Shown: piece after piece, positions 14,585-35,137 of the stretch
How the letters are laid out: each line of letters begins with the position of its first letter
Position numbering within the stretch: the first letter of the stretch is position 1
Source: Vreelandella subglaciescola
GTDB lineage: Bacteria; Pseudomonadota; Gammaproteobacteria; Pseudomonadales; Halomonadaceae
DNA length: 60,422 nt
Assembly: GCA_030454225.1 (NCBI GenBank)
Contig: JAKDRW010000006.1
Coordinates: 1-60,422 of the forward strand
Direction of reading: 5' to 3'
Translations under genes and position numbers: made by a program
The notes under the pieces: generated by a model
The model's database searches: none
Told to the model about the DNA's origin: nothing
Seen by the model: the letters and a program-made list of their open reading frames with translations, nothing else

Positions 14585-15301
14585 TTAGTGTGCGGTCTGG
14601 TTAACGCGCCGGGACACTTCCTCGGCGCTTTCCACGCGCTCGGAGTAGCGGTCGGTCAGGTAGGCCGCGCGCCCGCGGGTCAGCCAGGTGAATTTCACCA
14701 GTTCTTCGCAGACGTCGACGATGCGATGATAAAGCGGTGACGGCTTCATTCTGCCGGCGTCATCGAACTCGTTAAACGCCTTGGGTACCGACGACTGGTT
14801 GGGAATCGTCAACATCCGCATCCAGCGCCCCAACAGCCGCAGCTGGTTAACCGCGTTAAAGCTCTGGCTGCCGCCGCATACCTGCATCACGGCCAGCGTT
14901 TTGCCCTGGGTCGGTCGCACGCCGCCCAGCGCCAGCGGTATCCAGTCAATCTGGGCTTTCATCACGCTGGTCATCGCGCCGTGACGCTCGGGGCTGACCC
15001 AAACCATGCCTTCGCTCCACTCGGCCAGCTCGCGCAGCTCTTGCACCTTGGCGTGTTCAGCGCTGGTGTCATCGGGCAGCGGCAGGCCCGCGGGATCAAA
15101 GGTGCGCACTTCGCAGCCCAGATGATGCAGCAGCCGTCCCGCTTCTTCCGCCACCAGGCGCGAATACGAGCGCTCGCGCAAGGAGCCGTAAAGCACCAGA
15201 ATGCGCGGCGAATGGCGGGGATCGCCCTCGGCGGCCAGACGATCGATATCCAGCGGCTGAAACTGGTCGGGCTCGACGTGGTACAGCTCGTTAGCGCTCA
15301 T
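14585..15301 (-). CDS. arsH: Arsenical resistance flavoprotein ArsH
   Basis: An NADPH-dependent FMN reductase of 238 residues; ArsH enzymes oxidise trivalent organoarsenicals and reduce quinones. The flavodoxin-like FMN-binding motif [11 protein letters not shown], the [20 protein letters not shown] segment and the [13 protein letters not shown] tail are characteristic. Its ATG overlaps the stop of the arsC part by four bases (ATGA), so it is translationally coupled to it; arsB follows 51 bases downstream. Confidence 0.95.
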
Positions 15302-16068
15302 TGGGCCTCCTGCTCGCCGCGTTTTTCAGCCAAGCTGACGGTCTCGCCGTTTTCCTTGGTGAAGGTTTCAACCGGCGTTGCCAGCAGCCCAAGCACCGCC
15401 TCGGAGGGACGGCACAGGCGCGTGCCTTTGGGCGTCACCACGATCGGGCGGTTGATCAGCAGCGGATGCTCGAACATGGCGGCGATCAGCGCGTCATCGT
15501 CGAGCGCGGGAACGTCCAGCTTCAGCTCGTCAAACGGCGTGCCCTTGCAGCGCAGCAGCTCGCGCGGCGAGATCTGCATGGCCGCCATCAGCTCGACCAG
15601 CTTCTGCCGCGACGGCGGCGTTTTCAGATACTCGATGACGTGGGGCTCTTCGCCGGACTGGCGCATCATCGCCAGCGTATTGCGCGAGGTGCCGCAAGCG
15701 GGGTTGTGGTATATAACGCTGGTCATGGGCGTGTCTCCTTGCAAGGGCGCCGGGCCGGAAACGTCCGGCGCACAGCGCTGCGGGTCACCGGCGCAGCAGT
15801 CGCGCACCAGAAAATCGAGGGTCTCGTTGAGACCTTCCAGCCGAGCGCGATAGATAATCGAGCGGCTTTGGCGTCGGGAGATAACCAGCCCGGCGCGCTG
15901 CAGCGTGGCCAGGTGCGCCGACATCGTATTATGGGGCACACCCTGCTGACGGGCGATGTCGCCTGCCGATAGCCCGTCGGGCTCATGGCGCACCAGCAGG
16001 CGAAACGCATCAAGCCGCGTGGGCTGCGAAAGCGCGGCGAGAACGTCGAGGGTTTTTATTTTGTCCAT
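15298..16068 (-). CDS. ArsR-ArsC fusion: arsenite-responsive repressor joined to arsenate reductase
   Basis: A single 256-residue frame. Residues 1-114 are an ArsR/SmtB winged-helix repressor (HTH around [17 protein letters not shown]) whose likely As(III) ligands are Cys91, Cys92 and Cys99 in [11 protein letters not shown], the C-terminal ligand type seen in Acidithiobacillus ferrooxidans ArsR rather than the E. coli helix-3 type. Residues 115-256 are a complete 142-residue glutaredoxin-dependent ArsC with the catalytic Cys in [11 protein letters not shown]. No stop separates them. ATG 16068 opens the repressor homology; upstream codons show none. A strong internal ribosome site before the ArsC ATG (15726) could yield free ArsC as well. 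ArsRC fusions are known in a few other bacteria. A sequencing error cannot explain the frame, since both halves are full length. Confidence 0.88.
15735..15740 (-). promoter_or_regulatory. Internal ribosome-binding site for free ArsC
   Basis: AAGGAG on the minus strand lies eight bases before the ATG at 15726, the first codon of the ArsC half. It allows a separate 142-residue ArsC to be made in addition to the fusion. Confidence 0.7.
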
Positions 16069-16069
16069 C

Positions 16070-16087
16070 TGTCTAGAATTACAGACA
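16070..16087. promoter_or_regulatory. Inverted repeat upstream of arsRC, possible ArsR operator
   Basis: TGTCT and AGACA are separated by eight bases, immediately upstream of the arsRC ATG. Autoregulatory ArsR sites are usually imperfect dyads in this position; the assignment is tentative. Confidence 0.4.
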
Positions 16088-16182
16088 CATAAACAAAACG
16101 CAATGCTTCCACGGCAAGCCACCGGCCGTGGCGAATGCTATGATACGCGCCCTGCTACTCCGTATACCGCAAGAATAGGCAC

Positions 16183-20009: not shown

Positions 20010-21956
20010 CTAGGTGGCGATAATCTGGCGATAAATCCCCGGCAGCGCGAGCGATAAATGCTCGGGGCGCTGGACGATGGCATAGCTGCCGCGGCCAAAC
20101 AGCCGCGGAATGTATTGCCCGGCCTGACGGTCGATGGTGACGCCAAACACGCGAACGTCCTCGCGCCGCGCTTCCAGCACCGCCTTGCGGGTATCTTCAA
20201 TGCCGTAACGGCCTTCGTAGTAGTCGTTGTCGTTGGGCTTGCCGTCGGTGAGCATCAACAACAATCGATGGCGGTTGGGGCGTTTGGCCAACTCGGCGGT
20301 CAGATGCCGAATGGCCGGGCCCATGCGCGTATAGCTGCCGGGTTTAAGCGCTGAAATGCGTCGCGTCACCCGCTCGTTCATGGGCTCATCAAACTCCTTC
20401 AACGTATTCACCCAGACCTTGTGACGCCGCTGGGAAGTAAAACTGTGAATGGAATAGTCATCGCCGCAGCCGGCCAGCCCGTGGCCCAGTACCAGCAGCG
20501 CTTCCTTGGCCACATCCAGCACTCGACGGTCGTCGAGCCAGGCTTCGGTCGACAGCGACACATCCACCAAAATCGATACCGCCAGATCCCGCGCCTGAGT
20601 GCGGCTATCGATATAGAGCCGGTCGCTGGACTCGCCGGTTGCGGCCAGATCGCAGCGCGCGCGAATCACCGCGTCCATGTCCAGATCGCTGCCGTCGAGC
20701 TGGCCGCGCAGCATTTCCCGCCGAGGCCTGAGCGCTTCAAACTCGCGGCGCACCCGGCGTATGCGCCGGCGCGTGATTGCATCGGGCGTCCAGTTTTCGC
20801 CTTCTTCGCTTTGCACATCGCTGAGTACCACGCAGTGGTCGGGCAGGTAGGCCTGTTTGCGGTGGTTCCATTCGGGGTAAACGTGGCGGCCTTTCAGCCG
20901 CGTGCCGGCAGCGGCGTCGGGCGCCAGATCCAGATCGAGCTTGAGCTTTGACGAGGCCTTCTTGCGGTTGGGCGAAAGCACGATCTCGTCCATCTGGTCA
21001 GCCGCCTGTCGGGCATCGTCTTCTTCGTCATCCACGTGGCGGTTGAGGTTGACCATCTCGGCCCAGGAGAGCATTTTTTCCGAGGCGTTGAGCATCAGCG
21101 GGTCGTCGCGGTCGGCCTGATCCTGCTCGCGCCGATCGGCCTGACGCTTACCCTGATCGTCCTCTGCGTCGTCGCGGGTGGTCAGCGCGGCGTCATCGTC
21201 GTCGTCTTCAACGGTTTCCTGCGTGGCATCGCGAATGCCGAGGCTCATCGCCTGCCCCCAGAGCGGCACCGGCAGCGGCGGGCGATAGCCGTGCGGGGCA
21301 GAAAACTCCTCCAGCGGGTAGTCGGGATCGCGGAGGGCGCGCTGCAGGACAAACGCCAACCCGCTTGCGGGATCGGGCGCGCCCAGCTCGGCGCACAGCG
21401 CCGCTTCCAGCGCGGCTTCCACCGGCGGTAACCGCCGGCGCCGTGGGCGTATGGCCAGCAGCCCGGCACACAGCGCAACGTAGCGCGCCTGCAGGCCGGG
21501 AAACCGCTCCAGCGCACGGCGCAGCGTACAGCGCGCGTTCTGCAGCAGGCGGATATCCGCCTGCAGCGGGTCCTCGGGCAGCACCAGCGGGCGCGCCTCG
21601 GCCAGATACGCGGTGAGCCACAGGTACAGATCGCGGTTCAGCGTCACCTCGGGAAACAATCCCAGCCGCGGCGGCAGCAGCAGATGCTCTTCGTCGCGGC
21701 GCGCCTGATCCAGCGCTTCTTCGTCCAGCCCCAGCCGCTGGCGCAGGCTCAGCCGATGGCGCGAGCCGCGGCGCTTGATGGCCGCCACTTCAACGTCGGC
21801 TTCGCCGCCGGCGGCGCGGAAAAACACGCTCAGCACGGGCAGCAGGCTTTCCAGCGTTACCGCCGCGTCGGGGTGATCGGGGTAACTTTCCGCACTCGAT
21901 GCCCAGCGGTGCCAGTGGCGGCCAACAAACTCTTCAACCTCAAGAAAATCCAGCAT
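20010..21956 (-). CDS. norD: NorD, VWA-domain NO reductase activation protein
   Basis: A 648-residue cytoplasmic protein needed for maturation of NO reductase together with the NorQ ATPase. The C-terminal von Willebrand factor A domain shows the metal-ion site DVSLSTE, then RTQARDLAVSILVDVSLS context, the SYTRMGPAIRHL threonine loop and LLLMLTDGKPNDNDYYEGRYGIEDT (in part: LTDGKPNDNDYYEGRYG). The middle is acidic and low in complexity. ATG 21956 follows GAGGGGA; the longer TTG start at 21974 would overlap norQ. It is directly downstream of norQ. Confidence 0.92.
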   Translation of the reverse strand: MLDFLEVEEFVGRHWHRWASSAESYPDHPDAAVTLESLLPVLSVFFRAAGGEADVEVAAIKRRGSRHRLSLRQRLGLDEEALDQARRDEEHLLLPPRLGLFPEVTLNRDLYLWLTAYLAEARPLVLPEDPLQADIRLLQNARCTLRRALERFPGLQARYVALCAGLLAIRPRRRRLPPVEAALEAALCAELGAPDPASGLAFVLQRALRDPDYPLEEFSAPHGYRPPLPVPLWGQAMSLGIRDATQETVEDDDDDAALTTRDDAEDDQGKRQADRREQDQADRDDPLMLNASEKMLSWAEMVNLNRHVDDEEDDARQAADQMDEIVLSPNRKKASSKLKLDLDLAPDAAAGTRLKGRHVYPEWNHRKQAYLPDHCVVLSDVQSEEGENWTPDAITRRRIRRVRREFEALRPRREMLRGQLDGSDLDMDAVIRARCDLAATGESSDRLYIDSRTQARDLAVSILVDVSLSTEAWLDDRRVLDVAKEALLVLGHGLAGCGDDYSIHSFTSQRRHKVWVNTLKEFDEPMNERVTRRISALKPGSYTRMGPAIRHLTAELAKRPNRHRLLLMLTDGKPNDNDYYEGRYGIEDTRKAVLEARREDVRVFGVTIDRQAGQYIPRLFGRGSYAIVQRPEHLSLALPGIYRQIIAT

Positions 21957-21966
21957 GACAATCCCC

Positions 21967-22794
21967 TCAGCCAAAGGTCGCGCGAACGGCTTCCATCAGC
22001 CCTTCCTGCACGTCGGCGTCGTCGGAAAGCGGCTCCACCAGCGTGGCGCGGGCGGCTTCCAGAATCGGCATGCCGGCGCGAATCAGCGTGGCGCAGTAGA
22101 CCAGCAGGCGGGTAGATATGCCCTCTTCCAGGTCTTGGCCTTTCATTGCGCGCAGGCTGGCGGCGAGGTTAACCAGCGCCGCACAGCGCTCGGCGGGCAG
22201 GCCGCTTTCCCGGGCGACAATCTCGCGCTCCACCGCGGGCGGCGGAAAATCAAACGACATGGCGACAAAACGCTGACGCGTGCTGGGCTTGAGCGATTTC
22301 AGAATATGCTGGTAGCCGGGGTTGTACGACACCACCAGCATGAAGTCGTCCGGCGCTTCGAGCAGCTCGCCGGTACGCTCAAGGGGCAGCACGCGGCGGT
22401 CATCGGTCAGCGGGTGCAGCACCACGGTGACGTCCTTGCGCGCCTCCACCACTTCGTCGAGGTAGCAAATGCCGCCCTCGCGCACCGCGCGGGTCAGCGG
22501 GCCATCGACCCACTGGGTTTCGCCGCCTTTGAGCAGGTAGCGGCCGGTCAGGTCGGCGGCGGTCAGGTCGTCGTGGCAGGATACCGTATGCAGCGGCTTG
22601 CCCAGTTTGGCCGCCATGTGGCTGATAAAGCGGGTTTTACCGCAGCCAGTGGGGCCTTTCAGCAGCAGCGGCAGGCGCTGGGCATATGCCTGCTCGAACA
22701 TCTCGCATTCGTTGCCCACGCTTTGATAATAAGGCACCGACGCGCCCAGCGCGGGTGTCGAGTCGGCAGGTTGGGTCAGGGTTGATAAGGACAT
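21967..22794 (-). CDS. norQ: NorQ, MoxR-type AAA+ ATPase
   Basis: A 275-residue AAA+ ATPase of the MoxR/CbbQ/NorQ group that remodels NO reductase during metal or cofactor insertion. Walker A is GPTGCGKT at residues 47-54, Walker B is ICYLDEV, and the sensor and arginine-finger region is VVSYNPGYQHILKSLKPSTRQRF (in part: YNPGYQHILKSLKPSTRQRF). It lies between norB and norD on the same strand. A GC-rich hairpin (22838-22860) separates it from norB. Confidence 0.94.
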   Translation of the reverse strand: MSLSTLTQPADSTPALGASVPYYQSVGNECEMFEQAYAQRLPLLLKGPTGCGKTRFISHMAAKLGKPLHTVSCHDDLTAADLTGRYLLKGGETQWVDGPLTRAVREGGICYLDEVVEARKDVTVVLHPLTDDRRVLPLERTGELLEAPDDFMLVVSYNPGYQHILKSLKPSTRQRFVAMSFDFPPPAVEREIVARESGLPAERCAALVNLAASLRAMKGQDLEEGISTRLLVYCATLIRAGMPILEAARATLVEPLSDDADVQEGLMEAVRATFG

Positions 22795-22866: not shown

Positions 22867-24222
22867 TCAAGCGCTTGCGGCGCCTGCGGTGAGCTGTGTA
22901 CCGCCAGCCGGCACCTGAACCCGCCGGGGGCCAAAGAAGGAATAAAGCAACAGCCCGACGCCAATCGCGACGGCCACGCCGGCACCCAGGCGCATGGCGT
23001 AGAACAGTCCCAGCTGACCCTGCACTTCCATGTAATTCATGCCCAGCACGCGCTGCAGGTGGGTTTGCACCACGCCGGCAAAGGTCAGCGTGAAGGTCAT
23101 GAAGCACATCGCGCCGGTCGTGATCCAGAAGCCCCACATGTTCATCACCTGGTTATACGGCTGGCTGCGGCGCAGCGACGGCATGGCAAAGGTAATCACG
23201 CCCAGAATGATCATCACGTAGGCGCCGTAGAAGGCCAGGTGCCCGTGGGCGGCGGTTACCTGGGTGCCGTGGCTGTAGTAGTTGACCCAGTGCAGCGTGT
23301 GCATGAAGCCCCACACGCCGGCGCCGAAGAAGGCTACGGTCGGGCAGCCCAGCGTCCACAGCATGGCGGCCTTGTTGGGATGGTTGCGGGTGCCTTTCCA
23401 GAACATGGTGAAGGCGAACATCACCATGGTGAAGAACGGCGCCACTTCAAGCGTCGAGAAAATGCTGCCGATGGGCTGCCAGTAGCTCGGCGCACCAATC
23501 CAGTAGTAGTGGTGGCCGGTGCCCAGCAGGCCCGAAAACAGCGCCAGCCCGACGATCACGTAGAGCCACTTTTCGATCACTTCGCGGTCGACCCCGGTCA
23601 TCTTGATCACCAGGTAGCCCAGCAGCGCCGCCATGATCAGCTCCCACACGCCCTCGACCCACAGGTGAACGACCCACCACCAGTAAAGCTTGTCGACGGC
23701 AAGGTTGGAGGGGTTGTAGAAGGCAAACAGCCAGAACACCGCCGCGAGCCACAGCCCCAGCATCAGCACCATGTTGATGGCCGTCTTGCGGCCTTTGGCC
23801 AGCGTCATGCTGGTATTGAACAAAAAGATCAGGAACGAAATGGTGATCAGCACCTTGACCCAGAACGGCTGCTCCAGAAACTCGCGCCCTTCGTGAATCC
23901 CGAACTGGTAGCCCACCAGCGCGGCCGCCCCGGCAAAGGCAAAAATTGCCAGCTGCAGGTAGGCCAGCCCCGGGCTGTGGATCTCGCGCTCAGCCTCTTC
24001 GGGCATCAGGTAGTAGGTGCAGCCCATAAAGCCGATCAGTAGCCACACGATCAAAAGGTTGGTGTGGCTCGCGCGCATAATGTTGAACGGCATCACGCTG
24101 GCCATGAACTCAGGCCAGGCATAGACCGTAGCGGCCAGCAGGCCGAAGACAATCTGCAAGGCGAATAGCGCCATGGCGACCATAAAAAACGGCAGCGCCA
24201 CCTTTTGCGTTTCGTATTTCAT
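22867..24222 (-). CDS. norB: Nitric oxide reductase subunit B (cytochrome c-type)
   Basis: Catalytic subunit of cNOR, reducing two NO to N2O at a heme b3-FeB centre in the inner membrane. The 451-residue protein has about 12 helices. Conserved ligands and signatures include the low-spin heme His in RASHTNLLIVWLLIG, the VVHLWVEGVWE helix with FeB ligands and catalytic Glu, the GTGHHYYWIG di-histidine, and the GFMHTLHWVNYYSHGTQVTAAHGHLAFYG region (in part: HTLHWVNYYSHGTQVTAAHG). No quinol-type N-terminal extension is present. It follows norC by 18 bases. Confidence 0.97.
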   Translation of the reverse strand: MKYETQKVALPFFMVAMALFALQIVFGLLAATVYAWPEFMASVMPFNIMRASHTNLLIVWLLIGFMGCTYYLMPEEAEREIHSPGLAYLQLAIFAFAGAAALVGYQFGIHEGREFLEQPFWVKVLITISFLIFLFNTSMTLAKGRKTAINMVLMLGLWLAAVFWLFAFYNPSNLAVDKLYWWWVVHLWVEGVWELIMAALLGYLVIKMTGVDREVIEKWLYVIVGLALFSGLLGTGHHYYWIGAPSYWQPIGSIFSTLEVAPFFTMVMFAFTMFWKGTRNHPNKAAMLWTLGCPTVAFFGAGVWGFMHTLHWVNYYSHGTQVTAAHGHLAFYGAYVMIILGVITFAMPSLRRSQPYNQVMNMWGFWITTGAMCFMTFTLTFAGVVQTHLQRVLGMNYMEVQGQLGLFYAMRLGAGVAVAIGVGLLLYSFFGPRRVQVPAGGTQLTAGAASA

Positions 24223-24240: not shown

Positions 24241-24693
24241 TTAACCGGCGGGAAACGGCGGCCAGTCTTGCGCGTCTATGCCATCGGTCCATTCGAGAAA
24301 ATCAATCAGCGACTGCATCTCATCTTCGCTGAAGTCGTAGGCCGGCATCTGGCGCCGTCCGGGCACGTTCAGCGGCTGGGCCCGTATCCACGCGGCAATG
24401 CCATTGCGCGCCGCATCGGCGTTTTCATGCCCGCCGTAGCGCTCCCAGACATTGGATAGCTCCGGTGCAAAGTAGGCCCCCTCGCCCAACAGGCTGTGGC
24501 AGTTGATGCACATGTTCTTTTCCCACACCTCTTTGCCGTGCTTGACCGAGTCGGTCAGCCCCGCGCTGTCGGTAGAGACATTCACCATGTACCAGTGGCT
24601 ATGCGCCGTTAGCGCCGCAAACAGCAGAAAGAAGAACAGCGACCCGCCATAGAAGATATTGCGGGCCGCCGACTTGGTGAGACCTTCGGCCAT
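24241..24693 (-). CDS. norC: Nitric oxide reductase subunit C (c-type cytochrome)
   Basis: A 150-residue membrane-anchored monoheme cytochrome c, electron donor to NorB. One N-terminal helix (about residues 15-31) is followed by the heme site CINCH (C62, C65, H66) and the distal methionine M116 in RRQMPAYDFS. It leads norCBQD. The 150-base region upstream carries an NsrR-type box and a perfect FNR/Dnr box. Confidence 0.97.
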   Translation of the reverse strand: MAEGLTKSAARNIFYGGSLFFFLLFAALTAHSHWYMVNVSTDSAGLTDSVKHGKEVWEKNMCINCHSLLGEGAYFAPELSNVWERYGGHENADAARNGIAAWIRAQPLNVPGRRQMPAYDFSEDEMQSLIDFLEWTDGIDAQDWPPFPAG

Positions 24694-24757
24694 GAGTTAC
24701 CCCCTTTTTTGCTCGCCTGGCAGGCGGCAACTGGGCACGCCGACCTGCGGTTTTTAT

Positions 24758-24780
24758 AAGATGCAATTAATATGCATCTT
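24758..24780. promoter_or_regulatory. NsrR-type box in the norCB promoter
   Basis: AAGATGCA and TGCATCTT flank seven A/T bases, giving the 23-base dyad known for NO-sensing NsrR repressors. On the minus strand it overlaps the start predicted from the FNR box, placing repression at the initiation site. Confidence 0.82.
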
Positions 24781-24810
24781 TATTGTAAAGCACCTGTCCC
24801 GTCACAAACG

Positions 24811-24824
24811 TTGATGGGGATCAA
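24811..24824. promoter_or_regulatory. Perfect FNR/Dnr box in the norCB promoter
   Basis: TTGAT-GGGG-ATCAA is a perfect palindrome. On the minus strand, a TACAAT minus-10 element (24787-24782) stands at the spacing expected for class II activation centred at minus 41.5. Confidence 0.88.
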
Positions 24825-24846
24825 GAAGACCCGAGAAAACGCCGCG

Positions 24847-26001
24847 TTAGCGGCATACATGCAGCGGTACGTGGGCGTAACCGCCGGCGGGATAACAGGC
24901 GCGCACGGCAGGCTCGTCGGGAAGCGTACGAAGGCTACGAGTGGCACTAAGCAGCGCCTGCATAAAGTCCAGCAGCTCCATGCGCGCCAGCGGCGCACCG
25001 GGGCAGACATGAATGCCGGCGCCATACAGCAGGTTGCTGTCAGGGTTACGGTCCAGACGCACCGTGTCCGGTTCGGCAAATACCTCGGGATCGCGGTTGG
25101 CCGCGCCCCACAGAAGCGTCAGCCGCTCGCCTGCGGCAATATGGCGCCCGCCGACGTCGACCGGGCAGGTGGCCACCCGCCGGTTGGACATCAGCGGCGC
25201 ATCCAAACGCAGTATTTCGTCGATCACCTCGGGCAATATGCCGGGCTCGTCGCGCAGGCGCTGCTGCCAGTCGGGGTTAGCCGCCAGAAACTGCATCAGG
25301 CTACCGATGCTCGCGGAAATAGTGCCCAGCTCGCCCACCGTCCAGTTACGCATCAGGCTGACCAGCTCTGCATCGGTCAGCGGCCGGCCGTCGACCGTTT
25401 CGTTCATCAGGCGGGTGGTGACGTCATCGGGCGGTGCAGGCATCGCGCGGCGCACTTTCAGGCGTTCGCGAATCACGCCGTCAAATTCCAGCGCCAGCCC
25501 GCTCAGCGCCTCACGGTCGCCGGCCAGGGTCGCTGCCTGCTGGCGTTTGACCCAGTCGCGCAGCGGTTCGTGCAGGCTGTCCGGCCAGCCCATGAAGGCA
25601 CACTGGATTTCCAGGGCGAAGTTCTGGCCCATTTCGGCCATGGCCTCAACCGGGCCGTCGTGGGGCAGGCGGCTAACTACGCCTTCGGCAATGGCGCGGC
25701 AGCGGGGGGCAAACTCGGCCATCGCCGCGGCGTTGAAGTACGGCTCGATAATCCGCCGAAAGCGGGTATGTTCGGGCGGATCCATGGCGTTGGGCACGGA
25801 TAAATGTCGGCTCGCCGCGTTGCTGAACGTTGCGTGGTCGTTGAGCACGCGCACCACGTCCGCGTGGCGCAGCAGCGACCACTGCAGGTAGTCGCTGAAG
25901 GCGACCGGGCAGCGGCCGCGCAGCTCGTCATAGGCGTGAAGCTGGTCGTCCTGAATGCTTGGCGCGCGGGGGTCCCAGTCGGCCTGGCAGGTATCGCTCA
26001 T
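24847..26001 (-). CDS. Cytochrome P450 in the NO-reductase cluster
   Basis: A soluble bacterial P450 of 384 residues. The heme-binding Cys333 lies in YGAGIHVCPGAPLAR, and the K-helix ExxR is E262-ILR. In the I-helix, the usual A-G-x-D/E-T-T/S stretch reads V-G-E-L-G-T-I (residues 222-228), so the acid-alcohol pair used for oxygen activation is replaced by Leu-Gly; fungal NO-reducing P450nor also lacks the acid. ATG 26001 follows AGGAGG by five bases. The gene lies directly upstream of norCB on the same strand and has its own perfect FNR/Dnr box at 26066-26079. A role in NO or nitrosative-stress chemistry is inferred from context; no ferredoxin partner is nearby. Confidence 0.9.
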   Translation of the reverse strand: MSDTCQADWDPRAPSIQDDQLHAYDELRGRCPVAFSDYLQWSLLRHADVVRVLNDHATFSNAASRHLSVPNAMDPPEHTRFRRIIEPYFNAAAMAEFAPRCRAIAEGVVSRLPHDGPVEAMAEMGQNFALEIQCAFMGWPDSLHEPLRDWVKRQQAATLAGDREALSGLALEFDGVIRERLKVRRAMPAPPDDVTTRLMNETVDGRPLTDAELVSLMRNWTVGELGTISASIGSLMQFLAANPDWQQRLRDEPGILPEVIDEILRLDAPLMSNRRVATCPVDVGGRHIAAGERLTLLWGAANRDPEVFAEPDTVRLDRNPDSNLLYGAGIHVCPGAPLARMELLDFMQALLSATRSLRTLPDEPAVRACYPAGGYAHVPLHVCR

Positions 26002-26065
26002 GTTGCCTCCTAAGCAAGTGAGGAGAGACAACACTCAGGGAAGCACAGCCCGGCGGCAGCGCGTA

Positions 26066-26079
26066 TTGATACAGGTCAA
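26066..26079. promoter_or_regulatory. FNR/Dnr box upstream of the P450 gene
   Basis: TTGAT-ACAG-GTCAA fits the Dnr/FNR consensus exactly. It is centred about 71 bases before the P450 start codon, in the gap after the marR stop. No strong minus-10 element is evident at the ideal spacing. Confidence 0.78.
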
Positions 26080-26114
26080 GCCGCGAGCTGGCTATCGACA
26101 CAACCTGTCAGAGG

Positions 26115-26558
26115 TCAGGAGAGCGCCGGATAGTCAGACAAACAAAAGGTTTCCTTGAACTGGCGCAGCTCCGGCTGGTGCAGCGTGGCGATGCACCGGG
26201 CGAGCTCGGCGCCGCGTGCCAGCAGGTGCACTTCGCTGCGGCGGCGGTCTTCGCGCCCCTGCACGCGCTGTACAAACCCCGACTGCTCGCAGCGGTCCAC
26301 CAGCATGACCGTACCGTGGTGCTTGGCCTGCAGCCGCTCAGCAAGCTCGCCTACCGTGGCCCACTGGCGCGCCTCGCCCCCCAGCAGATGCAAGAGCAGC
26401 TGATATTGCAGCGGCGTTACGCCGTAACGGCGGCAAATGTCCTCGCTGTGGCGTAAAAAACAGCGTAGCTGGTAGCGAAACTGCGACAGCTCCTGAAAAT
26501 CCTGCGGGCCAAGTTCCTGGTGGTCAGGTTCCTGCCGGGTAAGAGAAGCATCACACAT
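26115..26558 (-). CDS. MarR-family transcriptional regulator
   Basis: A winged-helix regulator of about 147 residues. The core reads YGVTPLQYQLLLHLLGGE, then ATVGELAERLQAKHHGTVMLVDRCEQSG (in part: VGELAERLQAKHHGTVMLVD) and the wing RVQGREDRRRSEVHLLARG. ATG 26558 is chosen over GTG 26570; neither has a strong ribosome site. It lies upstream of the P450 gene and diverges from the Yip1-family gene, with a long palindrome between. Effector unknown; MarR proteins often sense phenolics or oxidants. Confidence 0.85.
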   Translation of the reverse strand: MCDASLTRQEPDHQELGPQDFQELSQFRYQLRCFLRHSEDICRRYGVTPLQYQLLLHLLGGEARQWATVGELAERLQAKHHGTVMLVDRCEQSGFVQRVQGREDRRRSEVHLLARGAELARCIATLHQPELRQFKETFCLSDYPALS

Positions 26559-26633
26559 GACATCGTCCACGGTTGCCGCACCCGGCGCCTGCTATATTGA
26601 CAAGCTACCCAGTACGACCTAAGGGTTAAACAT

Positions 26634-26656
26634 AAAACATCATAGTATGATATTTT
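26634..26656. promoter_or_regulatory. Long palindrome in the marR-yip1 divergent promoter
   Basis: A perfect 13-base core ATCATAGTATGAT is extended by AAAAC and ATTTT to a 23-base dyad with a single mismatched pair. It lies between two divergent genes and is the best candidate for the MarR operator. It does not fit the NsrR or FNR consensus. Confidence 0.65.
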
Positions 26657-26711
26657 CGTTTACCTGACGAGTTTGCCCGATCCGTTGCCTCCCACCTTTG
26701 AGGACACCGCC

Positions 26712-27278
26712 ATGAATCCCACCACCGTGATCAAGCTGCCCTTCACCCGTCAGGCAGGCTGGAAAGAACTGCAGCGCCGCCGGCCATCCATTGCCAAGCT
26801 GGCCTTTTGTCTGGTGCTGCCCATGTCGCTGATTCCGCCGGTGCTGTTGTATTACGCCGGCACCCACTACGGCGATGCGTTCGTCGCCGGCTTTGGTGAC
26901 CGGCAGTGGCGTTTTATCACCACCATCCTGTTCTTGTCCGAACTACTGACGTTTTTCGTCATGGGCTGGCTGATCCACACCGTGGTCAACATCGCCGACG
27001 AGATGACGCTGGATTATCAGGACGCCTATTTACTCGCCGCGCTCGCCCCGCTGCCGCTGTGGTCATCGGCGCTTGTGCTGCTGATTCCCAGCCTGCTGCT
27101 GAACGTATTCGCCGTGCTGGTGGCGCTGGGCATTTCCTGCAGCCTGGTGTACCAGGGCCTCGGGGCGCTGTGTGAGCGCCGAGGGCAGGACATGACGACC
27201 ATGTCGGCCACCTACACCGTCATGGCCGCCGGCGTACTGGCCTGGGGGCTGTTAATGGCTATTATCTGGTCATATTGA
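26712..27278 (+). CDS. Yip1-family inner-membrane protein
   Basis: A 188-residue protein with five hydrophobic helices after a soluble N-terminal 30 residues that includes KELQRRRPSIAKLAF. Helix spacing and the ADEMTLDYQDAYLLAALAPLPLW segment (in part: TLDYQDAYLLAALAPLPLW) fit the Yip1/YIPF-type family, whose bacterial function is unknown. ATG 26712 follows GAGGACA. It is divergent from the MarR gene and is followed 55 bases later by a chemoreceptor. Confidence 0.8.
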   Translation: MNPTTVIKLPFTRQAGWKELQRRRPSIAKLAFCLVLPMSLIPPVLLYYAGTHYGDAFVAGFGDRQWRFITTILFLSELLTFFVMGWLIHTVVNIADEMTLDYQDAYLLAALAPLPLWSSALVLLIPSLLLNVFAVLVALGISCSLVYQGLGALCERRGQDMTTMSATYTVMAAGVLAWGLLMAIIWSY

Positions 27279-27333: not shown

Positions 27334-28455
27334 ATGCCCTTATGGAAACGCTCTCGCCCGCTGCCGAAATCGCCCGTAGCGGAGGACGTCGATAACCTGC
27401 GCACTGAGCGAAATCGCCTGCAGGCGCGTGTTACCGCGCTGGAAACCGAACAGCGCCTGCATCAGCATCTATTTACCAACCTGACCGGCTTCGGCGATTC
27501 AGTGATCGCCCTGCGCGAATCCTTTACCGATTTGTCATCACTGCTGCTCGGCAACCAGCGAGCCACCGCGTTCACCAGCGATGAATCTCAACGCAGCCAG
27601 CAGGCGCTCAACGCCATGCTGAAAGATTTGCAGACACTTAACCAGCAGATCAGCAGCGCAGCGGAAGAGGTCACGATATTGCACAAGGATGCCGAGCACA
27701 TTGACAACTTTGTTCAGGCTATCGACAAGATTTCGCTGCAGTCCACGCTGCTCGCCTTTAACGCCAGTATCGAAGCCGCGCGCGCCGGCGAGGCCGGTCG
27801 AGGGTTTTCCGTAGTCGCGACCGAAGTTCGCCAGCTAGCGACCCAGACTCACAGCGCGACCGGCGAAATTGGCGAGCTTAATCGCAGTATCCTGCAACAG
27901 GCAGGGCACGTTGACGACACCATGGTCGATAACGCACACAAAGCCGAACACCTCAGCACTGAGGCGAGCCACGTCATGCAGCGTACCGAACAGCTGCTCA
28001 CGCTCACCCGCGAAAGCAGCAAGGCGCTGTCGTTCTCCGCCATGCTCAGCGAGGTTGAGTTGGCCAACCTGGAAGAGCTCGAAATCAAGCTGGACGTTTA
28101 TCGCATATTCATGGGCCTGTCCGAGAAAACCGCCGCCGATATCCCCGATGAAACCCAGTGCGCGCTAGGCCAATGGTATTACCAAGGCACCGGCAGCCAG
28201 CAGTTTAATGATGATCAGGATTTTCAGGCGCTGGAAGTCCCACACCGCGAGGTACACCAGCAGGCCATCGCTGCGATTGAGCACCGCCAGTCAGGCGACG
28301 CCGAGGCCGCCATGGCAGCGCTTTCGCGCATGGAAGCGGCTAATTTGAACGTCATGGAACGGCTGCGCTATATCATGCGCAAATACCGCCCGGCGGCGTC
28401 AACGTCGCTGCCGACAGAAGCCGATTCCCAGCCGACGGCGTTGGCGCTCGCCTAG
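27334..28455 (+). CDS. Soluble methyl-accepting chemotaxis protein with CZB domain
   Basis: A 373-residue cytoplasmic chemoreceptor without membrane helices: an N-terminal coiled coil (about residues 20-50), a short MCP signalling domain with the hairpin tip [22 protein letters not shown] (in part: [18 protein letters not shown]), and a C-terminal chemoreceptor zinc-binding (CZB) domain. CZB ligands normally are His, Cys, His, His; here Cys276 (CALGQWYY), His304 and His308 are present, but the first His position reads Glu248 ([13 protein letters not shown]). ATG 27334 is chosen because AAGGA lies six bases upstream. The stop shares a CTAG with the converging nnrS stop. CZB sensors respond to zinc, hypochlorite or pH; the Glu variant may change this. 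Confidence 0.88.
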
Positions 28456-29618
28456 CGCCCCACTCTGGCGGCGGCGATCCAGTGCACCAGCCGCCAGGCC
28501 ACTAACAGCCAGGCCATGCTCCAGCACAGTGCCGCGCCCCACAGCGCGGCCTGACCGCCGCCCCAAGCCACCGCGAGCCGCAATACCGCGGCGGCGGCAA
28601 ACAGCAGTACCAGCGGGATAAACGCGCGTTCGCTGTCAGGCGGAGCCTTGGCGCGCGATACCGCCTGACGCAGCATCACCGTGCTGGACAGCGTGCCCAG
28701 CGCCCCGATGGTAAACGCATGCAGCGCGGTACTCGTACCCATGCTCCTGGGCCCGGCGCCTTGCCACTGCGCACCGGCGAACAGCCAGAGCCCCGCCGCC
28801 AGCCAGGCGTAGCCCGCCATCAGAGCCAGCAAGTCCGCCCGCGTGCGGCACTGCCAGGGCGCAAACCCCCACAGCCGATAGGCCACCAATGCTCCGGCCG
28901 CCAGCGCCAGCAGCGCGGCGAGATAGCGCCCCCAAGGCAGCCACAGAGTAAAAGGCAGCATACCCAGCAGGATAATCAGCGCCGCCTCAAGCCGTGGCTG
29001 CACGCCGGCACCGCTTTTGTTGAGGTAGCGCTTGAAGTAGCCGTTGACCGCCGGAGCAATCAGGCGCCCGCCCATAAACGTCATCAGCAGTACCCACCAC
29101 AGCACACCCTGCTCAAGCAGCGAAAACGCCGACCAGCCGCTGCTATAGCGCGCTCCCAGGCTCATCACGGCGACCAGACAAATCATCCCGATCAGCGGCC
29201 CCAGCACGCGGTTGCGCCATTTTTTCGCGGCAAAAAACCGCGGCACCACCCACCACGCTATCAACACGGCAAACAGCGCGTCGGCCAGACTTGCCGCCAC
29301 CAGCCAGGCACCGCCCAACAGCCCTAGCCGACCCACACCCCATAGCGCTACCAGCAGTATCAGCCGCTGTCGGCTCAGCGGCCCCAGCAGGTAACCCGCC
29401 ATGACCGCCAGCGCAAAGCCGAACAGCAGCTCGCGGGCGTGCCCGGCAGGCGTTGCCAACGGTGTTGCCCATGGCAACACCGCGTACATCGCCGCCAGCG
29501 ACAGCGGCACAAACAGCGCAGCATGAAGCGCCGCCAGCGGAAAAAACACCTGCCACGCCTGGGTGCGGCCGCGCCCGGCCCGCGCCCGGTAAGCGGTGAG
29601 AAAAGTAAACATTCTCAT
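28452..29618 (-). CDS. nnrS: NnrS-family heme-copper membrane protein
   Basis: A 388-residue inner-membrane protein with about 12 helices, of a family that relieves nitrosative stress and is widespread in denitrifiers. Landmarks are [40 protein letters not shown], the [11 protein letters not shown] motif and [13 protein letters not shown], with histidines proposed to bind heme or copper. It lies within the NO-related block but has no FNR or NsrR box visible upstream. Its 3' end overlaps that of the chemoreceptor gene by four bases. Confidence 0.9.
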
Positions 29619-30638: not shown

Positions 30639-30734
30639 TGGCGGAAGGCAGTGGGAGTCGAACCCACCCAGGGACGGCTGCCGCCCCCAACCGGATTTGA
30701 AGTCCGGCCGCACCACCGGATGCGATTGCCTTCC
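30639..30734 (-). tRNA. selC: tRNA-Sec (anticodon UCA), with encoded CCA
   Basis: Read on the minus strand the 5' end is GGAAGGCA and the 3' end is TGCCTTCCGCCA, giving an eight-pair acceptor stem. The anticodon arm contains GGACTTCAAATCC with the UCA anticodon, and there is a long variable arm and a T arm with GGTTCGACTCC. Length is about 96 bases, one more than E. coli selC. It lies 30 bases downstream of selB, completing selA, selB, selC in one block. Confidence 0.96.
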
Positions 30735-30764: not shown

Positions 30765-32690
30765 TTACGTTGTTTTGAGCCGCTGGGCTACGCTGCTTTC
30801 TTGACGCACGTAACGACTATTACCCCGCCGGCGGGTGACGCCAATGTGGTCGAGGTATTCCAGCAGCTGAATGCAGCGCTTACGCCCCAGCCCCAACGTA
30901 TTACGAAACGCCACCACGCTCACTCCGTCATCGCGCTCGGCAAGCGCCACGGCCACCGCCGCCAGCGACTCCACGGTAGCACGCGGGTAGAACAGGTCAC
31001 GCACCACCTGATGCAGTTCGCCCATTCGCGAAAGCTTGCGCAGCAGCGCGCGCACCTGCGCTTCATCGATATTTTCATGACGAGCTAGACCGCGCACCCA
31101 CAGCGGATCGTTGCCGCCGGCTTCGAGCAGCGGCCACAGACGTGCCTTGAGCGCCTCCTCTGCCGCGCTCAGACGCACGCGGTGGTGCGACATATGCAGC
31201 CAGGGACCCGTCGCGCACATAGCTTCGATTGCCAGCGCTTCGTCGACCAGCGCGGTATACACCGCAGGCTCCAGGTGCGCCATACCGAAGCGGCGCAGGC
31301 GCGCGCGATCCGCTCCCGGCTCGTCGGGCTGCGCCTGGTGAAAGCGCTCGAGCGTCTGCGTTATTGCCTCGCCAAGTTGGCGCCAGCGTGACGTGGAAAA
31401 CAGCCGTTGGCCGCGCCGTGTAGGCACCTGCTGCACTTTCTCGGGCAGCTGCCAAAACGCCTGCGGACGATTGTACTGGCGCTCGAGCGCCTCGGGGGCC
31501 AGCCCGTTGACGGCGCTTTCCAACCGCTCGGCAAGCGTAGTTTCCAGCCCGCCACGCGCCAGCGTAGCCAGTTCAGCCAACCGTGCCAGCGTGCGCCGCC
31601 CGCGCGCCGGCGCTTGGGGGTCAAGCACGCGCCCGCCGCCAAGCGTAAACCAGGCCGACTGGTCGCGCAGCACGATGGCATCGCCGTGTACCGCATGGGC
31701 GTGGTCGTCCAGCACCAGCTGTGCCAAGGCTTCATCGCCCGGCGCCAGTACGCTACCTTCGAGCAGCGCTACGCGCCCCATTAGCCGCTGCGCGCCAAGA
31801 TGAACGTGCACCGGCGTCCAGTGCACCAGCGAGCGCGGCGCGTCGTTTAACAGCCGCAGCTGAATATCGACCCGTTTGCTGGTGCCCCGCAGCGCCTCGG
31901 CCACCAGCCAGCTGCCGCGCGCTACGTGCTCGGGTTTAAGGCGCTCACCCGCCAGGTTAAGTGCCACCCGCTGGCCGGCGTGAGCGGCGTCGGCGGGCCG
32001 GTTTTGCGCGTGCAACCCGCGTACGCGCAGCCGCCGGCACTGGCCTTTTTCACCTTCGCTCCACAGGCTGTCACCAACGCTTACGCGCCCGGCCAGCGCC
32101 GTTCCAGTGACCACCACGCCAGCGCCCGACACGCTAAAGGCACGGTCAACGGAGAGGCGAAAATGGCCGTCGGCGGCGCGCTCAGACAGCGCCTGCGCTT
32201 CGTCGGTCAGCGCGGTTTTCAGCGCGGCAACGCCGTCGCCGGTATAGCTCGACAGCGCAAAGCACGGCGCTTCCCGGTAGCCGGTGCCCTCCAGCAGCGT
32301 CTGTATTTCTACCTCGACAGCGGCGTGGCGCGCGGCGTCAACGCGGTCGATCTTGCTCAGCGCTATCCACAGCCGGGGGATACCCAGCAGGCCAAGAATC
32401 GCCAGATGCTCGCGGGTTTGTGGCATCACGCCGTCATCAGCAGCCACGACCAGCAAGGCGACGTCGACGCCGGCCGCGCCGGCCAGCATGTTGTGGACAA
32501 ATCGTTCGTGCCCCGGTACGTCGATAAACCCCAGCGTGGTAGCAGCGTCTACCACGATATAGCGGTAACCCAAGTCGATAGTGATACCACGATCGCGCTC
32601 TTCGCGACGGTGATCGCCGGCCGCGCCGGTGAGCGCTTCCAAAAGCGCTGTCTTGCCGTGGTCAATGTGTCCGGCGGTCGCCACAATCAT
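30765..32690 (-). CDS. selB: Selenocysteine-specific elongation factor SelB
   Basis: A GTPase of 641 residues that carries Sec-tRNA to UGA codons next to a SECIS hairpin. GTP motifs are [27 protein letters not shown] and SKID; the C-terminal third holds winged helices that bind the SECIS (ending in [19 protein letters not shown], quoted as [18 protein letters not shown]). The frame is open upstream to 32906, but ATG 32690 gives the family N terminus [12 protein letters not shown] and overlaps the selA stop (ATGA), showing coupling. Confidence 0.95.
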
Positions 32691-34129
32691 GGGGCCAATG
32701 CCTCCTGAGCCACCTGCGACGCACGCCGCGGGTACTCCGTTAGCTGATGCAGAAAAGCCGCTTCGTCGTCCAGCTGGCGTAGATCCAGCCACAGTGCCCC
32801 CGCATCGATACGTCCTACCACGGGAATCGGCAGGTCGCGCAGCGCCTCGCTCAGCGCGCTGAGCGCTCGGCCGGCATCGCGCCGCGAGCCCTGCGGCGAC
32901 AGGCACAGCGCCGCGCTGGGAAGTCGCGCCACCGGCTGCGCGCCGCTACCTACCATACCCAGCGCCGGCTCGGCCTCCACGCACCAGCCGTCTCCCAGCC
33001 AGGCGCGCACGCGGGGCGCCAGCCGCTTGGCCTGAGCGGCAATCTCGTCGGTCGGCCGGCTTAGCAGGCGCAGGCTGGTCAGGCGTTCGGCCAGTCGGTC
33101 GGGATCGCGGTACAGCCCGAGTACAGCCTCAAGGGCGGCCAGCGTCAGTTTATCGACTCGTAGCGCGCGCTTTAACGGGTGACGCTTGATGCGCTCGATC
33201 AGCTCGCGCCGCCCGACGATAATTCCCGCCTGGGGGCCGCCCAGCAGTTTGTCGCCGCTAAAAGTGACGATATCAGCACCCGCGGCGAGCGACTCCTGCA
33301 CCAGCGGCTCGCGGGGCAACCCAAAACGCGACAGGTCCACCAGGCTGCCGCTGCCCAGATCTTCCACCAGCGGCACGCCGTGCGCGTGCGCAAGTTGCGA
33401 CAGCTCGTCGGTCGGCACGCTCGCGGTAAAGCCTTCGATACGGTAATTGCTGGGATGAACCCGGGCAATAAGCCCCGTGTGCTCGCCCAGCGCATTGGCG
33501 TAGTCGTGGGGGTGGGTGCGGTTGGTGGTGCCCACCTCGTGCAGCGTCATGCCGGCCTGTTCCATGATATCGGGAATGCGAAACGCGCCGCCGATCTCGA
33601 CCAGCTCGCCGCGGGAAATCACACCTTCGCGCCCGCTGCCCAGCGCGCTGAGCACCAACAGCACCGCCGCGGCGTTATTATTGACCACGGTCGCCGCCTC
33701 GGCGCCGGTCAGCTCGCACACCAGCTCGGCTATCAGGTCGTCGCGATCACCGCGCCGCCCATTGGCCAGATCAAACTCCACGTTTATCGGGTAGCGCGCC
33801 GCCAACGCCACCGCGTCGACCGCCTCTTCGGGCAACAACGCGCGCCCCAGGTTGGTGTGCAGCACCGTGCCGGTGAGGTTGAAAAGGCGCCGAACCCGCG
33901 GCCGATGATGTACCTCAAGGCGCGACGCGAGCGCCGCTACCAGCGCTTCGGTGGCTACCACAGGCGCCTCAAGCCGACCCTCGCGAAAGGCTTCGCTGAG
34001 CGCGCCAAGCTCGGCTCGCGCAACGGCAAGCACGGCCTTGCGCCCGTAGCGCGCCTCAAGCGCATCGACGCCCGGAGCGCCAAGCAGGCGCTCGACCGAC
34101 GGCGGACGCTTCACCAGCGGATCGGTCAT
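32687..34129 (-). CDS. selA: L-seryl-tRNA(Sec) selenium transferase
   Basis: A PLP enzyme of 480 residues that converts Ser-tRNA(Sec) to Sec-tRNA(Sec) with selenophosphate. The PLP lysine lies in [15 protein letters not shown]; other landmarks are [30 protein letters not shown] and [14 protein letters not shown] 34129 has GAGGAG seven bases upstream and lies five bases from the fdhE stop. The selenophosphate synthetase gene selD is not in the window. Confidence 0.95.
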
Positions 34130-34133
34130 GGCG

Positions 34134-35066
34134 CTACTCCTCGTCACCGCCACCGGGCGCCAGCAGCAGGTTAGGGGCCAGCCGGTGATAGCCCTGCTGG
34201 TCAAGGCGCACATCCAGATCGAGGCTGGCCAGATCGGCGGTTAACGGCTCGCCCTCGGGCGTCTGCTCTAGATACAGCTGCTTTAAATAGGTATGGCACT
34301 CGGGGCAGCCTTCGGCTTTGATGCCGTGCGGCGTCTCTTCAAAGTGCAGGTAATCAAGCTCGCGGGTGCTCAGGCAATGGCTGCACTTGAGGCGTACATA
34401 GTGCCATTCGGCCGCGCATAGCGAGCACACCAGATAGCGCACCCCGTCGATGGGGCGACGATGACGAATCACCCCGGCCACCGGCAGCGAGCCGCAGCAG
34501 GGGCACAGCGCCTGATCTTCACGTTCACGAATCCCTTGCGGGTCAACCTGGCCGAGCCAATAGTGCCAAGCCAGCTGCAGCGCCGCGCCCAAAAACGGCG
34601 CAATGGCCGCGGGCACATCGCCAAAACGCCCGCCCAATAGCGCAATGGCCCAGCGCTTGCGCGTTTCGCTACCGGCTTCGCGCAGGGCGTTAGCCGCCTG
34701 GATAACGGCGTCGGGTAGCGCTGGAACGTCGGCAGTAAAGGCGTCAAGCCAGGCCTCCAGCAGCGTTTGCCAGCCGCCGTTCTGCACCAGCGTATCTACC
34801 GCCAACGGCGGCATATCGTGCTGGTAGGCGGCGTTTAAATGCTCGATGGAGAGCACGGGCAGCTCGGGGGGAGCCTCCAGCACGCGCTGCTGGGCGCAGG
34901 CGACTCTAGCCATCAACAGCAGGTAATCGCCCATCGCGTGGCCCTCGGCCAGCTCGGTGAAGCGTTCAGCCCGGTGGCGGAAAAGCGCTGCCGGCGGCAG
35001 CTGGACAAACGGCGGGGTCATCGCCGAGGCTTCAATCTGCCCCGGTTCCAGAATATTGGAAGACAC
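34134..35066 (-). CDS. fdhE: Formate dehydrogenase accessory protein FdhE
   Basis: A 310-residue cytoplasmic rubredoxin-like protein that helps assemble respiratory formate dehydrogenases. Four CxxC motifs are visible: CPCC, CSLC, CSHC and CPEC, the iron-binding sites of the family. The GTG start at 35066, preceded by AGGAG, gives MSSNILEPG and the usual family length (309 in E. coli). It lies between the fdh operon terminator and selA. Confidence 0.94.
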
Positions 35067-35096
35067 GGGCGCACTCCTTATTTGGTCAACGACGGC

Positions 35097-35137
35097 AAAA
35101 GCGCCGGCAGCGCTTGTCAGCACGCTACCGGCGCTTT
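35097..35137 (-). terminator. Terminator after the formate dehydrogenase operon
   Basis: AAAGCGCCGG pairs with CCGGCGCTTT around a 20-base apical part that itself contains AGCG/CGCT. Read on the minus strand it ends in GCTTTTGCC. It separates the fdh structural genes from fdhE-selA-selB. Confidence 0.7.

What the first reader, a model, noticed from the sequence alone, without database searches (positions are those of the whole stretch)
24811..26079. A P450 embedded in the NO-reductase regulon with an atypical I-helix
The P450 gene (24847-26001) lies directly upstream of norCB on the same strand and is flanked by two perfect FNR/Dnr boxes: TTGATACAGGTCAA upstream of itself (26066-26079) and TTGATGGGGATCAA (24811-24824) for norCB. 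Its I-helix reads VGELGTI where typical P450s have A-G-x-D/E-T-T/S, so the acid-alcohol pair for O2 activation is gone, while the heme Cys333 and ExxR are intact. Fungal P450nor, the only P450 known to reduce NO, also lacks the I-helix acid. A bacterial P450 acting on NO, nitrated or nitrosated compounds is a plausible, little-described part of NO metabolism. Sites and residues are read directly; function is inference.
Basis: partly seen in the sequence, partly recalled or inferred. Interest (0 to 1): 0.78.

Follow-up and report, generated by a model that had tools for sequence, protein, structure and literature searches.

The report
Denitrifier P450 with P450nor-like helix
Next to the nitric-oxide-reductase genes lies a gene for an apparently undescribed kind of cytochrome P450, found in various bacteria, often beside nitric-oxide genes, and lacking the acid that oxygen-using P450s need, so it may handle nitric oxide instead; no activity has been shown.

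Summary
The gene is real: a 384-aa P450 directly upstream of norCB. One FNR box is perfect (24811-24824); the other (26066-26079) has 9 of 10 consensus bases. The I-helix claim needs correction. Profile alignments show only the acid lost (Gly226; Gly/Ala/Ser in 76 of 76 covering family sequences) and the catalytic threonine kept (Thr227, 76 of 76). P450nor has the same pattern (A-G-N-A-T), but its Ser286 is not matched and it is not a near relative, so this is an analogue at most. The protein belongs to a distinct family (50-82% identity, distant kin 40%) in Proteobacteria and some MAGs. Of 85 family loci, 44 carry nor, nir, nnrS, hmp or ytfE within 8.5 kb; of 76 control stretches, none. In the window's family 29 of 31 carriers have norB, against 57 of 201 genomes. 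Six carriers have NirK or NirS-sized proteins but no NorB match. Against: 41 of 85 loci show no such gene nearby, and most norB genomes lack the P450. I rate an NO-consuming function most likely, at about 0.4; unproven.

The parts
24847..26001 (-). P450 gene, 384 aa (ATG at 26001)
25318..25350 (-). I-helix signature R218-N-W-T-V-G-E-L-G-T-I228; Gly226 at the acid position, Thr227 at the alcohol position, Glu224 invariant
   Evidence: residues 218-221, 223, 224, 227 and 228 identical in the 76 of 78 sequences that cover them
25207..25218 (-). ExxR motif, Glu262-Arg265
24997..25026 (-). haem-binding loop Y326-GAGIHVCPG, Cys333 thiolate ligand
26066..26079 (.). FNR/Dnr-like box 65-78 bases upstream of the P450 start codon, 9 of 10 consensus positions
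   Evidence: core TGA-N6-TCA upstream of 22 of 26 Halomonas-type relatives
24811..24824 (.). perfect FNR/Dnr box between the P450 stop and norC
24760..24778 (.). NsrR-like palindrome upstream of norC, 16 of 18 positions of a recalled consensus
24241..24693 (-). norC (cytochrome c)
   Evidence: name from context and recall
22867..24222 (-). norB
   Evidence: weak haem-copper oxidase match (ccoN model, 32 bits, below cut-off); name from context and recall
21967..22794 (-). norQ (AAA ATPase)
   Evidence: GvpN-type ATPase model 65 bits, below cut-off; name from context and recall
20010..21974 (-). norD (VWA domain)
   Evidence: name from context and recall
26115..26570 (-). MarR-family regulator upstream of the P450; conserved at that place in most Halomonas-type relatives
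26712..27278 (+). Yip1-domain membrane protein, frequent neighbour in Halomonas-type loci
28452..29618 (-). NnrS
   Evidence: PF05940, 167.5 bits

Best explanation
The gene encodes a soluble haem-thiolate (P450-fold) enzyme of a family that lives mainly in denitrifying or NO-exposed bacteria. In the window it is probably switched on with norCB by an FNR/Dnr-type regulator when oxygen is low and NO is present. Its I-helix lacks the acid used to activate O2 but keeps the threonine. I therefore think it most likely binds NO and removes it reductively in the cytoplasm, as fungal P450nor does, complementing the membrane NO reductase or, in some genomes, standing in for it. Shown by sequence: the gene, the boxes, the conserved acid-less helix, the genomic association. 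Inferred: regulation, NO as substrate, the reductive chemistry, the electron donor (unknown: NAD(P)H directly, or an iron-sulfur protein such as the SdhB-like protein encoded beside it in four Marinobacter loci).
For: I-helix: Gly/Ala/Ser226 and Thr227 in all 76 covering sequences of 78, lining up with P450nor Ala242-Thr243 (P450nor fragment confirmed against the PDB). NO or denitrification core genes lie within 8.5 kb in 44 of 85 loci against 0 of 76 control stretches. norB is present in 29 of 31 full-length carriers and 28 of 170 other genomes of the window's family (Fisher p 6e-17); of the 29, 28 have both genes on one contig and 23 within 26 kb. NnrS is in 8 of 9 carrier genomes examined, within 5 kb of the P450 in 7. 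NorB-like proteins are in 45 of 57 carriers. Of the 12 without one, 2 have NirK over the cut-off and 4 have a NirS-sized cytochrome d1 protein. The core TGA-N6-TCA lies upstream in 38 of 76 loci against 133 of 751 other conserved ORFs of the same loci.
Against: 41 of 85 loci have no NO core gene within 8.5 kb, including every named Halopseudomonas, Stutzerimonas and Pseudogulbenkiania locus (some other loci lie on short contigs). The P450 is absent from 28 of 57 norB genomes in the family sample and from 75 of 78 in the class sample. In that class sample only 3 of 7 carriers have NorB at E 1e-40. Nor is usually present already, so the reaction would be partly redundant. P450nor's NADH-contact residue Ser286 lines up with Pro269, next to a one-residue insertion, and the B-C segment is 4-15 residues shorter than in the solved P450s shown. 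No ferredoxin or reductase gene adjoins it in the window. Half of the loci (38 of 76) lack the FNR core. Related genomes are not independent samples.
Confidence: 0.4

Rival explanations
1. It is an oxygenase or peroxygenase for an unknown organic substrate that is useful at low oxygen (for example a lipid or quinone-related compound). It is placed in the anaerobic/denitrification region only because it is needed under the same conditions.
For: P450 fold with nearest solved relatives CYP125, CYP113 and CYP109, all substrate oxidases by name. Thr227 is kept. FNR-like boxes occur without any NO gene nearby in Halopseudomonas. ubiT, ubiU or ubiV homologues (oxygen-independent ubiquinone synthesis; names recalled from Pfam domains) lie within 8.5 kb in 19 of 85 loci.
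Against: The acid is absent in all 76 covering sequences. NO core genes are found more often than the ubi genes (44 against 19 of 85), with 0 of 76 controls for either. No reductase or ferredoxin gene adjoins it in the window.
Confidence: 0.3
2. It uses NO in another way: NO-dependent nitration or nitrosation (TxtE-like), removal of nitrosated metabolites, or NO sensing by a haem-thiolate protein without catalysis.
For: Same association with NO genes. NO-dependent nitration by bacterial P450s is known (passages of PMC9500659).
Against: The TxtE family model scores 96 bits against a cut-off of 500. No product pathway shows among the Pfam-labelled neighbours; NO synthase was not searched for.
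Confidence: 0.15
3. The neighbourhood is incidental: an accessory P450 carried along in a transferable denitrification region, with no role in NO metabolism.
For: Patchy distribution (31 of 201 full-length in the family sample, 7 of 369 in the class sample); fragments in G039, G155, G188, G053, G100, G001 and G041 and an incomplete copy in G466; Alpha-, Beta- and Gammaproteobacterial sequences are intermixed in the tree, with weak deep support.
Against: Linkage to different NO genes in different orders in Halomonas, Marinobacter, Azoarcus-type, Microvirga and Rhodoblastus genomes, with invariant active-site residues.
Confidence: 0.15

Closest known systems
Fungal P450nor (CYP55A1)
   Same: P450 fold; I-helix acid replaced by a small residue with the threonine kept (P450nor A242-T243, window G226-T227); NO setting
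   Different: Not among the 60 shown of 430, the 60 shown of 376 or the 50 structural matches shown of 1,687. Ser286 lines up with Pro269. The B-C segment is short, although the B' helix sets NAD(P)H specificity in P450nor (title of a reference seen). Glu224 stands at the kink-glycine position.
Bacterial class I P450 oxidases (CYP125, CYP113, CYP109, CYP107)
   Same: Overall fold (TM by query length 0.78-0.87 in the 50 shown), ExxR, Cys loop, conserved Thr
   Different: 20-29% identity; no acid; short B-C segment; FNR-like promoter and NO-gene context
Putative P450 NO reductases of Nitrosocosmicus oleophilus (ammonia-oxidising archaeon)
   Same: Earlier proposal of a prokaryotic P450 acting as NO reductase (abstract and passages of PMC6775971)
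   Different: Different organisms; proposed from N2O isotopes and expression at low pH; sequences not compared here
TxtE / RufO NO-dependent nitrating P450s
   Same: Bacterial P450s whose chemistry needs NO (passages of PMC9500659)
   Different: TxtE model 96 bits against a cut-off of 500; those act in natural-product pathways

Membership tests
Cytochrome P450 superfamily | P450 domain, ExxR, Cys haem loop, P450 fold | tested here: met
   PF00067 71.3 bits against 22.8; residues; model mean pLDDT 89.8 and PDB P450 matches
O2-activating P450 monooxygenase (acid-alcohol type) | Asp/Glu before the I-helix Thr | tested here: not met
   Position 226 is G 62, A 10, S 4 in the 76 covering sequences of 78 (register)
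O2-activating P450 monooxygenase (acid-alcohol type) | I-helix Thr/Ser | tested here: met
   Thr227 in all 76; register the same in the five profile alignments shown; a one-residue shifted alternative exists
P450nor (CYP55) | I-helix small residue + Thr (A242-T243) | tested here: met
P450nor (CYP55) | Ser286 contact to the NADH amide (with Thr243 and Ala239; passage of PMC4030948) | tested here: not met
   Lines up with Pro269, invariant in the family; a one-residue insertion beside it makes the local placement less sure
P450nor (CYP55) | B' helix that sets NADH/NADPH specificity | tested here: inconclusive
   B-C segment 4-15 residues shorter than in the P450s shown; model weak there (residues 61-70, mean pLDDT 58); not compared with P450nor itself
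P450nor (CYP55) | Closest sequence relationship to CYP55 | tested here: not met
   CYP55 not among the 60 matches shown; no tree with CYP55 was built
P450nor (CYP55) | NAD(P)H-dependent reduction of NO to N2O | not testable with these tools
   needs protein
TxtE-type nitrating P450 | NCBIfam TIGR04458 above its cut-off | tested here: not met
   96.1 of 500 bits
CYP152 peroxygenase | Arg-Pro in place of the acid-alcohol pair (recalled) | tested here: not met
   Gly-Thr at these positions
FNR/Dnr regulon | FNR/Dnr box upstream of the gene | tested here: met
   9 of 10 consensus positions in the window; core in 38 of 76 loci; binding not tested
NsrR regulon | NsrR palindrome upstream of the P450 | tested here: not met
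   best score 10 of 18 in the window, recalled consensus

The most novel reading that the evidence does not exclude
A bacterial counterpart of P450nor: a P450 family of Proteobacteria that reduces NO to N2O in the cytoplasm, evolved separately from fungal CYP55 with the same loss of the I-helix acid. In some NirK- or NirS-bearing bacteria without NorB it would be the main NO sink, and so an unrecognised source of N2O.
Probability: 0.3. Interest if true: 0.87.

Novelty: new variant of a known kind. Interest (0 to 1): 0.62.

Why it matters
Bacterial N2O production is normally predicted from norB (general knowledge). If this P450 reduces NO, genomes now read as truncated denitrifiers (NirK or NirS without Nor) would be misread, and the site-preference isotope signature used to tell fungal from bacterial N2O might also come from bacteria (the link between high site preference and fungal denitrification is in passages of PMC6775971). 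If it does not, it is still an unusual acid-less P450 family tied to low-oxygen gene regions, whose chemistry would be informative.

Tried and rejected
First I took the register from a MAFFT alignment with actinobacterial P450s, which put the acid on Leu225 and the alcohol on Gly226; rejected because it needs a compensating gap, while the profile alignments and the P450nor alignment agree on the other register.

NsrR control of the P450: no site in the window.

The SdhB-like iron-sulfur protein as dedicated electron donor: 18 of 31 carriers against 13 of 170 other genomes, directly next to the P450 in four Marinobacter loci (L038, L043, L051, L072) and in G019, but only weakly linked among norB genomes (16 of 29 against 8 of 28, p 0.04). 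In the window's genome (72% complete) and in G138 and G146 only one match, at 68% identity, was found, which I take for canonical SdhB; so not a general partner. HTHP haem protein: 18 of 31 against 8 of 170, and 18 of 29 against 5 of 28 among norB genomes (p 0.0007); linked, but not found in the window's genome.

Obligatory pairing with NorB: rejected. In the class sample 3 of 7 carriers, the window's genome included, have NorB at E 1e-40; two more (G229, G487) have weak matches in frames of 769-774 aa that I take for qNor.

Literature: eight searches bear on this question (two searches asked about HTHP and P450nor residues). I saw the listings and abstract starts and opened only some papers. 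None seen describes this P450 in denitrifiers. In the Bradyrhizobium NnrR paper P450 occurs only in a reference; a Hyphomicrobium paper describes a P450 gene of a sulfur-oxidation locus (passages); a survey of denitrification genes in Halomonas has no occurrence of 'cytochrome P' in its main text (passages).

Full report
Observation. The P450 gene 24847-26001 (-) is real and directly precedes norC-norB-norQ-norD on the same strand (nor names rest on domains, gene order and recall). The 153-base gap before norC holds a perfect FNR/Dnr box at 24811-24824 and an NsrR-like palindrome at 24760-24778 (16 of 18 positions of a consensus I recalled), so norCB probably has its own regulated promoter. 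The box upstream of the P450 (26066-26079) has one mismatch. These two are the best FNR-type sites in the 60 kb, but two sites with up to one mismatch also arise in 9 of 100 shuffles. A sigma-70 consensus scan of 24600-26700 found no promoter.

I-helix. The profile of 31 family members aligned to solved P450s has one gap-free register around the helix in all five alignments shown (four distinct proteins). In four of the five, G223-E224-L225-G226-T227 lies on A-G-N-E-T; in AryC on A-G-Y-L-P. So the acid is lost and the threonine is kept. Of 78 sequences (window plus 77 relatives), 76 cover the region: position 226 is Gly 62, Ala 10, Ser 4; Thr227 and Glu224 are invariant. Of the further relatives fetched later, L103, L104, L105, L107, L108 and L109 read G-E-V/L-G-T, while two distant ones (40-43% identity, L102 and L106) read A-G-H-G-T, one residue shorter. 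None has the acid. Alignments to actinobacterial P450s and to CYP107P2 give a shifted register with compensating gaps; a structure would settle it.

Family. A scan of a collection of 84,980 species genomes gave 168 relatives, of which the best 80 were kept, so the distribution seen is partial. 77 of the 80 are family members (50-82% identity; L076 and L078 cut by contig ends, L070 apparently broken) and 3 are actinobacterial P450s at 30-33%. Record titles include Halomonas, Vreelandella, Billgrantia, Marinobacter, Stutzerimonas, Halopseudomonas, Halovibrio, Halospina, Bowmanella, Pseudogulbenkiania, Thauera, Cognatazoarcus, Acidovorax, Microvirga and Rhodoblastus, and MAGs, two of them labelled Bryobacterales. 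The tree separates the family from the outgroup by a long branch; deep support is weak. The predicted structure is confident (mean pLDDT 89.8); the structural matches shown are bacterial P450s such as CYP125, CYP113 and CYP109 at 20-29% identity. P450nor is not among the matches shown.

Genomic context. Names of neighbours are from Pfam domains and recall. In 20 of 27 Halomonas-type loci (L002-L024, L028, L064, L069, L070) nirF or nirS lies within 4 kb of the P450, usually with MarR and Yip1 on the other side; in the window's nearest relatives nor takes that place. Within 8.5 kb, 25 of 26 Halomonas-type loci and 19 of 59 others carry norB/C, nirS/F, nnrS, hmp or ytfE (there L028, a Billgrantia, is counted among the others; several loci end early on short contigs; ytfE matches in three Marinobacter loci are only 28-32% identical, and the norB match in Bowmanella is 25%). 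As control I asked for 100 stretches of about 17 kb from carrier genomes, at positions picked by me without sight of their content: 20 did not exist because the contig was short, 80 came, 4 under 6 kb were dropped. The same search found none of these genes, no ubiT/U/V and no HTHP in the remaining 76, and one weak Crp/Fnr match. One control genome, G155, has only a broken P450. In Marinobacter persicus (L059) and genome G402, nnrS directly follows the P450; in genome G019, ubiT, P450, an SdhB-like gene and nnrS lie in a row on one strand.

Co-occurrence. In 201 genomes of the window's family (unnamed; Halomonadaceae to judge from the named relatives), 31 carry the full-length P450 (58-100% identity; 7 genomes with fragments only are counted as non-carriers) and 57 carry norB; 29 carry both (Fisher p 6e-17; 28 on the same contig, 23 within 26 kb). 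Related genomes are not independent. In a sample of 369 class genomes, 7 carry the P450 (one, G466, incomplete) and 78 carry NorB at E 1e-40; 3 carry both. Of 57 carrier genomes tested at E 1e-20, 45 have a NorB-like match: 41 of 49 named genomes and 4 of 8 taken by handle; five of these matches are weak (1e-21 to 1e-33; one, in G610, is a short fragment). The Halomonas-type loci were left out of that call. Of the 12 without a match, 2 (G019, G355) have NirK over the cut-off, G466 a partial match below it, and 4 (G579, G594, G606, G612) have a cytochrome d1 protein in a frame of 583-620 aa, NirS-sized. Three of those four are MAGs, and other NOR types were not searched. NnrS is in 8 of 9 carriers examined, within 5 kb of the P450 in 7.

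Regulation. The core TGA-N6-TCA lies within 250 bases upstream in 38 of 76 loci: 22 of 26 Halomonas-type (here L002-L024, L028, L064, L069) and 16 of 50 others. For comparison it lies upstream of 133 of 751 other conserved ORFs in the same loci, whose starts are approximate (Fisher p 2e-9), and in 304 of 3,478 random stretches. Halopseudomonas and related Pseudomonas loci have boxes with 9 or 10 of 10 consensus bases without NO genes nearby. Several Marinobacter loci have no canonical box, only a TTGA-containing element at a similar place.

Mechanism. Loss of the acid argues against ordinary O2 activation; retention of the threonine and the NO-gene setting suggest NO chemistry as in P450nor. 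P450nor's NADH-contact Ser286 (passage of PMC4030948) lines up with Pro269, and the B-C segment is short, so the electron donor or its binding should differ. A cytoplasmic NO consumer would complement cNor, which acts at the membrane (general knowledge). An oxidase or peroxygenase with an unknown substrate under low oxygen remains a serious rival, especially given the 41 of 85 loci without a nearby NO core gene.

Prior knowledge. A P450 NO reductase was proposed for an ammonia-oxidising archaeon (abstract and passages of PMC6775971). I found no description of this denitrifier family in eight searches of the open-access library, of which I saw listings and opened only some papers; subscription papers are mostly not held.

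Verdict. A genuine, well-conserved and apparently undescribed P450 family, associated with NO and low-oxygen gene regions; function unproven; new variant of a known kind.

Noticed in passing
window 36781-39855 (-), 30639-30734 (-), 30765-32906 (-), 32687-35123 (-): Selenocysteine system: a formate dehydrogenase catalytic subunit with an in-frame TGA (residue 212 of the translation), tRNA-Sec, an elongation-factor ORF that I take for SelB by eye, SelA and FdhE clustered here.
   Followed up: partly
L007:4740-5447, L038, L043, L051, L072, L108: An SdhB-like iron-sulfur protein (Fer2_3 and Fer4 domains), distinct from the copy present in nearly all genomes, next to the P450 or near HTHP and hmp in Halomonas and Marinobacter; no SdhA-like neighbour shows in the listing, but SdhA was not searched for. 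A possible electron donor.
   Followed up: partly
L069:3755-4186 and loci L009, L010, L014, L029, L033, L034, L038, L072, L104: HTHP (hexameric tyrosine-coordinated haem protein, PF11534) repeatedly near this P450; 18 of 31 carriers against 8 of 170 other genomes in the family sample.
   Followed up: partly
L041, L043, L044, L060, L061, L072 and other Marinobacter loci, about 70-100 bases upstream of the P450: Conserved TTGA-containing element (such as TTGATTTATCTTCAA or TTGATATTTCTCCAA) where an FNR box would be expected; regulator unknown.
   Followed up: no
window 15298-16122 (-): An ORF combining a helix-turn-helix domain and an ArsC domain, beside arsB and an FMN reductase.
   Followed up: no
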